From Owenia fusiformis (taxonomy: Eukaryota; Annelida; Polychaeta; Sabellida; Oweniidae): 64,000 nucleotides of DNA. The notes beneath the pieces are model-generated. The model had not been told where the DNA came from, ran no database searches, and saw nothing but the letters and a program-made list of their open reading frames with translations. The position numbers and the translations under genes were made by a program. The stretch covers positions 11,848,348 through 11,912,347 of the forward strand of contig CAIIXF020000006.1 in assembly GCA_903813345.2 (NCBI GenBank), in the 5' to 3' direction. Positions 6,101 through 9,100 of this stretch are shown in pieces; the stretch's first letter is position 1; each line of letters begins with the position of its first letter.

Positions 6101-9100
6101 CTTGAAGTATATGTATGTACACTTAAAGGTTTCACTACTGGCTAATATAAAACCTATACATAAGTATAGTATTTCAGCGCTATAAAATGTTTATTTTGAT
6201 TTCCTCCCATAGTAAAATATGCCCTTGTGGTATAAATGCAACCTGTGTGAAATAAATTAGAATTAAAATAGTTTGGATAAATAGAGCAGAAGCTGATTTC
6301 ATTCATACATCATGATCAGAGAGTTAAAATATATACAGGTCAAATTTTCATATTTACTTATCTCGAACATGACAGGCATGGGAATTTGGTTTTGTATACA
6401 ACTGGTTATACAGGTGAGGATGGAACATGTGATTTACAAAACAGTTAATGGGCATCATATAACTATACACATACAGCAAAACATGCCCTTGGAAACACCT
6501 CCATTAAAACAAGTTTTATTATATACAGTTAAATATGCCCTTGTGAATATGCCTCAAATAACACCTTTTTTTAAATATATTTTTTACTGACTTGATTGAT
6601 TAATTTTACTCCCAACACCCACCTACCAGGTATTAGTTTTCTTCAAACATTAGAAAATCAAATATTCACAGTAGCTCTGTAATAATAAATTGGGATCAAG
6701 TGTTTTATTGATAAATTGCCCTCTCTTGTTTTTTATTTGACATTATAATCAGTTGATTTGCCAAGCAAATTATAATTCTATTACAATAAAAACACATTTC
6801 TGCATTATAAAAACATTGTGGTATACTAATCCTTTAAGAAACAAGATTCTTTTGAACATAACATAAGATCAATATTTGTTATGGTTTAGTCTTTGAAGTT
6901 GGGTTCATATCCACAGAATGAGTTTTTGTGAATTTGATATTTTTAGACGTTTCATAACATATTCTGCATTGACTTTTTTTCATGGAACTTGTGGCTTTTA
7001 ATCCCCTCCCCATCTTCCATTACCCTTCCATTATCAATGCCACCATTAATGAATAATTTTTTTTGCACAGAAGCACAAAAGGCAACAGCTTAGAACAGAA
7101 ACAGTACATATTTCCAACAAACTAATTATGAAATCAGTTGAAGTAATGGTGATTTGTTGAATTTATAAGAATACAGGGCAACATTAGCAGAAAACAACAG
7201 ATCCTTATTATCTCGTACAGGATGGTCCAAAAGTTTGTTAAAGTATGTAGAAAAAGATTGTTGAATAACTGTAAAACTCATCATGAATAAACCATATAAT
7301 ATCTCATTTCTTCTTCGCCTTGAGAAACAGAAAGATGAGTATCAGAATGGTAATGTTTTAAAACCTACTTTTGAGACACCCAGTAAAAGACTGTAATATC
7401 AAAGGCAGGATGTTCTACTTATCATAAATACATCCTTTTTGTCTCAGTTATGGTACATTATTACATTGGTTATTCAACCATCTATGCAATATTACCTCAT
7501 AATTTACAACTTGAGTAAACTAGAAGGCTACTATAGATAATATATATAATGAATGCCTAAGAACAATGATTACGTCCAATTGATGATACCCATTTATCAT
7601 ATCTCTTAGTGGTTTGGGTGGAATGTGATTGAAATATACATGTGCCTTGATATACTCGTAATGATTGATAAAACCAGTATGTAGTTATCATTATGATGTA
7701 ATCTGTAATCAGGTATGATTGTCAAGTATGTCCTTCTGTAGGTGTACTTAAATATACCATGTACTGTATGAGCATGACATAGATTTTGATTCTCTTGGAT
7801 TGATAGAAAATCAGTAACAATCTATACATACATGTATATAGACAGTTGAAGAAAAGGGTATATTAGGGGATCTAGAACTAGTTGGACCCCTTTTGGAAAG
7901 TAAGGTCCATTTTTTCAAAAATTGAGGCCTGGGACAATTTTCAAGTAGAGCATTTTTCATTGAGCCTCTGCCCCTCCCCCTTCCTTCTAAATCTGCACGA
8001 TGTTGCATGAACTTGTTCAAAATATTTCACATTGATAGATAGTAAGATAAGATGAGAAATTTTAATTCAGATGAATATGTTTCACTGTATGGTATGTTGA
8101 ATTATTGGAAGTCACTTCGACTTTCTGCATTCTTTTCTCTGTTTTCCAATAAGGTAAATCAAACTAGAGTCAGTGTGATACCATGAGTCTTCATACTTTA
8201 ATTTGATAGGTAACATATGTAGATCCGCATTAGTATAACAGTAGGCAGAAGTTTTATTGACTAGTAGTTTTATAACTCAGGCCATTAGACTCTTTTGATA
8301 AAACTTTGACTTGTGCCTCACAGGCTTCGGGCCAAGCAGGGCCATTCCAGTACCCTGCGTGCAGAGTCTAGTTAAACTACACTCTGCCTAGTAGAGACCA
8401 TATTACAGTTTAGTAGCCCCGCCCACACGACGGGTACCGGTAACAGTTTGGGTAATAAATCACTTTTGACCTACGCACTGACCTTTCTTCCACCAATCAG
8501 CGAGCTTGAAGAAACATACGCCAAATGCGTTCTTATTAAATATGCGCATATCATTGGTCAATTCCGGGCTCAACGATGACGTCAGAAGGAATGACCATAT
8601 ATAAAACGTCGGTTAAATTTGGCCGACGAACACTGATTGGCTCGGTGAGTTCACAGGTTTATTTTAGTTTGAAAGAGTGAAGATGAAGCTCTCTTTTAAG
8701 AAGTGAGGTCAAACGAATGCAAAGGGTACCATTCCAGCAAAGGCATGTATAATGTACCTGAACCAACAATTTGCCGATTTTGCTGTAGTATTTTTGGTTT
8801 CCAGGGTACTGGTTCCCAGGTTTAATATAGCCTGATAGTTTGTGAGTCACAGTTGAGATACTTGACTCCTACACCAAACACTAAAGTCAAGTTGATCCAA
8901 CCAAGATATGAAATACTCCAAGTATGTAGTATGTGTTGGAATGTAATGTTACACCTGAATGTAGTGTAACATCTGGGGTTCCTTTAACATGAAAGTGGCT
9001 GCAACATTATGTATCAATTTGTATTTTAGTGCATTTCAGTCACTACTCAATAGTTCAAATACCATTCCTAATCAATAGAGTGATTTGTTCTGAGCCTATA

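What the first reader, a model, noticed from the sequence alone, without database searches (positions are those of the whole stretch)
8351..8728. Transposon family with 9-bp duplications that carries a ready-made CCAAT/CRE/TATA cluster
Three insertions (8351-8728, 41540-41917, 27383-27431) share TACCCT tips and are each flanked by a different 9-bp duplication (CCATTCCAG, CTGTGGTAT, ATRATCTCA). The two full copies are both 378 bp and both retain CCAAT boxes, a perfect TGACGTCA and a TATA-like stretch in the same order and spacing. A 9-bp duplication is characteristic of Mutator-like elements. If the cluster works, the family would scatter cAMP-responsive start sites through introns, including one 3.5 kb upstream of the nested UGT gene.
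Basis: partly seen in the sequence, partly recalled or inferred. Interest (0 to 1): 0.75.

Follow-up and report, generated by a model that had tools for sequence, protein, structure and literature searches.

The report
Jumping-DNA family leaving long scars
A 378-base mobile DNA element occurs about a thousand times in this animal genome, and about as many further sites hold only its two ends joined by an untidy seam, as if the middle had been cut out at two fixed points and the wound closed.

Summary
In detail: two 378-bp copies and one 49-bp copy, flanked by 9-bp duplications, from a family with 2,049 exact 3' tips in the genome. An exact 9-bp duplication flanks 84 of 106 copies tested.

Of 114 tip sites classified on one chromosome, 54 are short (mostly 64-95 bp), 55 keep the interior and 5 are other forms. 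In 50 non-redundant short copies the left end keeps at most 31 bp (one exception, 33) and the right end at most 51 bp, with 39 different trimmed or filled joints. Both limits fall at the same place in a CA^CTCT motif. I read the short copies as repair scars of cuts at two fixed internal sites; a P-element-like staggered cut with long, unequal overhangs is my inferred mechanism.

No transposase with these tips was found in the 18 transposase loci read, so MULE membership is unproven. The CCAAT/CRE/TATA block is present because copies are young: the CRE is no better kept than other sites, and is altered in the two most diverged full copies aligned. Promoter activity was not testable.

The parts
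8342..8350 (.). left 9-bp duplication CCATTCCAG
8351..8728 (+). full 378-bp element, copy 1
8380..8385 (+). inner left motif CACTCT (element 30-35); inferred cut after CA, 8381|8382
   Evidence: position; limit of retained left ends
8577..8584 (+). CRE-like TGACGTCA (element 227-234)
   Evidence: function not shown
8598..8603 (+). TATATA (element 248-253)
   Evidence: function not shown
8674..8679 (+). inner right motif AGAGTG (element 324-329), CACTCT on the other strand; inferred cut 8677|8678
   Evidence: limit of retained right ends
8729..8737 (.). right 9-bp duplication CCATTCCAG
41531..41539 (.). 9-bp duplication CTGTGGTAT
41540..41917 (-). full 378-bp element, copy 2 (reverse orientation)
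41918..41926 (.). 9-bp duplication CTGTGGTAT
27383..27431 (+). 49-bp short copy (scar): left 23 bp joined to right 26 bp, duplication ATAATCTCA/ATGATCTCA
26526..26606 (+). older 81-bp short copy, duplication CTTGGAGAT/CTTGGAGGA (7 of 9)
27116..27190 (-). older 75-bp short copy, flanks GAATAAACC/GAGATAACC (6 of 9)
24948..24996 (+). right-end remnant of about 48 bp with no recognisable left end

Best explanation
The 378-bp sequence is a young, non-coding (MITE-like) DNA transposon that inserts with a 9-bp duplication. Its cleavage machinery cuts not only at the outer tips but also at two inner CA^CTCT sites, 31 bp inside the left end and 51 bp inside the right end. The donor site keeps both outer pieces and both duplications; host end joining trims, fills and joins them, leaving a scar of about 80 bp. 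My preferred mechanism is a staggered cut as in P elements: one strand is cut at the outer tip and leaves with the element, the other is cut at the inner site and stays behind. That explains how the outer pieces can both stay in the scar and be present in every full copy. Shown: the size classes, the limits of the retained ends, the variety of joints, the duplications around scars. Inferred: that one enzyme makes both cuts, that the cut is staggered, and that scar formation accompanies transposition.
For: Tips: 2,049 exact 3' 19-mers and 1,893 exact 5' 18-mers, reversed-pattern control 0 in both; the 18-mer across the intact left inner site occurs 960 times, so about half of left ends lack it. 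Pairing the first 100 places of each list gave 74 pairs: 38 of 48-95 bp, 33 of 348-383 bp, one of 250, two over 1.4 kb. Joints: in 50 short copies, non-redundant by flank, left retention piles up at 29-31 (32 of 50) and exceeds 31 once (33); right retention piles up at 48-51 (33 of 50) and never exceeds 51; 39 distinct joints, 22 of 50 with filler. The limits are symmetric: AACTACA^CTCTGCC at the left and, on the other strand, GTCTTCA^CTCTTTC at the right. An exact 9-bp duplication flanks 36 of 50 short and 48 of 56 long copies. One-sided products: L126 joins left position 31 to 240; L122 joins the right piece from 329 to foreign DNA; L125 has a large insert between the ends. Diverged short copies L097 and L128 keep comparable end lengths. 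P elements cut one strand 17 nt inside the end (PMC7776569, passages).
Against: No transposase or longer partner element was found. Zero of 50 scars show the untrimmed 31+51 joint. Unequal 31/51 overhangs go beyond the 17 nt known for P elements. No insertion site was seen in both states: at the L084 site 8 of 8 copies read are full, at the L057 site 9 of 9 and at the L081 site 9 of 10 read are short, the tenth (L152) unclear. Paralogues at the L057 site (L141, L155) differ in the joint itself, so joints can change later. Two old short copies in the window share the centre TGTAGATGAAGC, which could mean that some short forms once moved. The cut sites could belong to a different enzyme.
Confidence: 0.6

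Rival explanations
1. Abortive gap repair: the element is cut at its outer tips, the gap is copied back from the sister chromatid and synthesis stops early, giving internal deletions (the usual origin of MITEs).
For: A few copies with other internal deletions exist: L060 (250 bp) and L120 (50-bp gap).
Against: It predicts scattered break points. Instead left ends stop at 31 (49 of 50) and right ends at 51 (50 of 50), at the same place in a shared motif.
Confidence: 0.12
2. The inner 296 bp is a second, nested transposon with its own enzyme that excises from an 80-bp host MITE. AACTA|CACTCT, with a TA before CA, resembles a Tc1/mariner end (recalled), whose excision leaves CA/TG remnants.
For: The inner ends are short inverted repeats (CACTCT/AGAGTG) and both limits leave CA / TG, the length expected of a Tc1-type cut (Tc1 footprint recalled).
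Against: The right flank is AA, not TA, and no duplication flanks the inner part. Zero of 50 scars are the canonical CA+TG joint. Diverged full copies (L092, L102, 66-71% identity) keep the same outer-plus-inner layout with CCCTCT at the left, and diverged short copies exist, so the arrangement is old and shared.
Confidence: 0.15
3. The short copies are a separate, mobile 80-bp MITE size class.
For: The same filled joint GAC occurs at two insertion sites (L067, L071) and AGAC at two. Short copies are also multiplied passively inside other repeats.
Against: 39 distinct joints among 50 copies with different flanks; a mobile class would share one centre.
Confidence: 0.08
4. One reading: a MULE family that spreads working cAMP-responsive promoters.
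For: 9-bp duplications. The CRE-TATA-third-CCAAT part (positions 225-322) is better kept (0.71-0.83) than 113-224 (0.31-0.71) in three diverged copies.
Against: No MULE with these tips in 5 of 8 PF10551 loci read. CRE intact in only 40 of 51 young copies and altered in the two most diverged; one of the three diverged copies, L120, is low only because of a 50-bp gap. No transcript evidence.
Confidence: 0.05

Closest known systems
P element superfamily
   Same: Donor cut on one strand well inside the element, so scars should keep terminal sequence plus target duplications; donor break repaired by end joining (PMC7776569, passages); non-coding MITE relatives known in mosquito (PMC1562414, passages).
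   Different: P: 17 nt at both ends, 27-31 bp terminal repeats and 8-bp duplications in Anopheles. Here: limits of 31 and 51 bp, a 6-bp terminal repeat, 9-bp duplications, and no P-type transposase with these tips in 6 of 13 loci read.
Mutator-like elements (MULE)
   Same: 9-bp target duplication.
   Different: Tips TACCCT instead of the rice GAG tip; no MULE transposase with matching tips in the loci read.
MITEs with excision footprints (rice DNA transposons)
   Same: Excision with trimming and filler DNA: 8 of 94 rice excisions were perfect, 58 had filler (PMC4423477, passages).
   Different: In the passages seen, rice excisions remove the element and often flanking DNA; here a fixed 31 bp and 51 bp of the element set the limits.

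Membership tests
MITE (non-autonomous DNA transposon) | short, non-coding, high copy number, uniform length, terminal inverted repeat, target duplication | tested here: met
   378 bp, about 98% identity, about 2,000 tips, 6-bp inverted tips, 9-bp duplication in 84 of 106
Mutator-like (MULE) | 9-bp (9-11 bp, recalled) target duplication | tested here: met
Mutator-like (MULE) | MULE transposase in an element with the same tips | tested here: inconclusive
   8 PF10551 matches, 5 loci read, no tips; 115 PF20700 matches, 7 loci read, no tips
P superfamily | 8-bp target duplication | tested here: not met
   9 bp here; 8 bp in P
P superfamily | 27-31 bp terminal inverted repeats | tested here: not met
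   only TACCCT/AGGGTA, 6 bp, is inverted in the consensus
P superfamily | second-strand cut inside the element leaving terminal sequence in the scar | tested here: inconclusive
   scar limits at 31 and 51 bp fit, but a stagger cannot be seen from joints
P superfamily | P-type transposase in an element with the same tips | tested here: inconclusive
   13 PF21787 matches, 6 loci read, no tips with duplication
Merlin | IS1595-type transposase with the same tips | not tested
   4 partial PF12762 matches; no locus read

The most novel reading that the evidence does not exclude
An undescribed eukaryotic transposition system in which the second-strand cut lies 31 nt (left) and 51 nt (right) inside the element, at a CA^CTCT site. 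Each jump then leaves a scar of about 80 bp, and about half of the family's sites in the genome are an archive of roughly a thousand germline end-joining events.
Probability: 0.4. Interest if true: 0.8.

Novelty: new variant of a known kind. Interest (0 to 1): 0.62.

Why it matters
If right, full copies and scars can both be counted in one genome, so the excision history of a transposon family can be read directly. About a thousand joints made at two fixed cut sites would be a natural data set on germline break repair in an invertebrate. It would also extend the known geometry of DNA-transposon cleavage beyond the 17-nt stagger of P elements, and warn repeat annotators that an '80-bp MITE' may be a scar.

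Tried and rejected
Transposase hunt: PF10551 (8 matches; 5 read), PF21787 (13; 6 read), PF20700 (115; 7 read), PF12762 (4; none read) (with loci). None of the 18 loci read has the tips around the gene. L042 and L106 merely contain unrelated relics of the element. The L109/L110 and L111/L112 families end in TTAA-like sequence.

Same site in both states: three insertion sites carried by other repeats were searched and copies read; none showed both full and short forms. Hairpin (palindromic) nucleotides at the joints: looked for by eye, not found as a rule. The tip in viral and prokaryotic collections: 0 matches. RNA families in the window: 0. A longer copy of 1,447 bp (L063) is a full element with another insert; the 1,477-bp pairing (L064) was two separate short copies. 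Bacterial promoter scan: nothing, and not meant for this genome.

Organism: 12 large contigs and 498 Mb fit the annelid Owenia fusiformis (505.8 Mb, 12 scaffolds; PMC9977687, passages). This is a guess; nothing rests on it.

Papers: listings only; one search returned no paper. Passages only for PMC7776569, PMC10983969, PMC4423477, PMC9977687 and PMC1562414. I make no claim of absence from print beyond these searches.

Full report
Observation. Both 378-bp copies, their 9-bp duplications and the 49-bp copy are in the sequence as described. In 41 copies (39 fetched plus the two in the window) the consensus is 378 bp with mean identity 98.6%; these were the best hits of a capped list, so this is an upper figure. 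The only inverted repeat at the very ends is TACCCT/AGGGTA. Over all copies detected by then, non-redundant by flank, the 9-bp duplication is exact in 84 of 106; in a control that swaps right flanks between copies it is 162 of 22,400, some of that from copies sharing a site.

Copy number. The exact 19-base 3' tip occurs 2,049 times and the exact 18-base 5' tip 1,893 times; reversed patterns occur 0 times. The 18-base string across the left inner site, which only copies keeping the interior can have, occurs 960 times, about half of the 5' tips. These counts include copies carried passively inside other repeats: at least 9 at one site, and lists filled with 40 and 34 full-length matches at two others.

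Two size classes. Only the first 100 places of each tip list are printed, all on contig C1. Pairing them gave 74 pairs: 38 of 48-95 bp, 33 of 348-383 bp, one of 250 bp, two longer. Of the two longer, L063 is a full copy with an insert and L064 was two separate short copies. Of 53 unpaired tips, 40 were read and 13 were not: 15 are short, 20 keep the interior, 5 are other forms. In all, of 114 sites: 54 short, 55 with interior, 5 other.

Joints. I aligned 50 short copies, non-redundant by flank, including the window's 49-bp copy and a 71-bp copy met by chance in L042. Retained left ends: 30 bp in 14, 31 in 11, 29 in 7, fewer below; one at 33. Retained right ends: 50 bp in 12, 48 in 9, 49 in 8, 51 in 4, fewer below, none above. 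There are 39 distinct joints; 28 have no filler and 22 have 1-31 extra bases. For four diverged or variant copies the 'filler' partly reflects mismatch to the consensus. The exception at 33 is at the L057 site, where two paralogues have longer centres (L141, L155), so it may be secondary. Both limits fall after CA in CACTCT: AACTACA^CTCTGCC at the left and GTCTTCA^CTCTTTC on the other strand at the right. A pile-up against a fixed limit, falling away on one side, is what trimming from a fixed cut gives.

One-sided forms. L126 joins left position 31 to position 240 of the same element. L122 has the right piece from 329 joined to foreign DNA with no left tip. L125 has a left tip, a large insert and the right piece. 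They fit cuts made at one end at a time. L130 and L089 are not informative.

Mechanism. The outer 31 and 51 bp stay at the donor site with their duplications, yet every full copy has them too. That is simple if the two strands part company: one strand of each outer piece leaves with the element, the other stays. P elements work in this way, with a 17-nt stagger (PMC7776569, passages). The step is inferred; a separate double cut at the inner sites by the same or another enzyme is not excluded. The diverged full copies L092 and L102 keep the same layout, and diverged short copies L097, L098 and L128 exist, so the behaviour is likely old.

Results against. No transposase with these tips was found in 18 loci read. 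No site was seen both full and scarred. No scar has the untrimmed 31+51 joint. Two old short copies in the window share a centre. Divergence of the retained right piece is similar in short and full copies from the tip lists, 0.069 (48) against 0.051 (15), so it does not order the two classes in time.

Promoter claim. In 51 young full copies TGACGTCA is intact in 40, TATATA in 47, and the three CCAAT/ATTGG boxes in 36, 51 and 50; the CRE's per-site identity of 0.973 is about what its base make-up predicts (0.984 for non-CpG, 0.959 for CpG sites). In L092 and L102 the CRE is altered; L092 keeps TATATA and L102 has a TATAAAA-like stretch instead. The block may be what is left of a transposase promoter, but that is a guess. 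Copy 1 lies about 3.5 kb upstream of an intronless UDP-glucosyltransferase gene at 12260-13804.

Noticed in passing
window 53409-54830 and 56148-57414: Long inverted repeat: a chain of arms of 48-408 bp, 83-98% complementary, about 1.3-1.4 kb apart at the inner side; perhaps a foldback-type element.
   Followed up: no
window 12260-13804 (+): Intronless UDP-glucosyltransferase open frame of 514 aa, Pfam UDPGT E 1.1e-82.
   Followed up: partly
window 43466-43891 (+): Open frame with a sub-threshold WW-domain match (24.1 bits against a cut-off of 26.9); looks like a host-gene exon.
   Followed up: no
window 40495-40802 and 44058-44842: Tandem arrays: 17-bp unit with about 18 copies, and 135/154-bp units holding GGCCGCCATTTTGAAAAATGG.
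   Followed up: no
L155:4138-5947: One repeat carries three different short copies of the element within 1.8 kb and has itself been multiplied; no coding frame over 100 aa was listed in the 9 kb.
   Followed up: partly
G000 contigs C313, C418, C443, C513: Tandem arrays of an intact 711-aa PF20700 ('Mutator') frame spaced about 3.3-3.8 kb, many identical in score.
   Followed up: no
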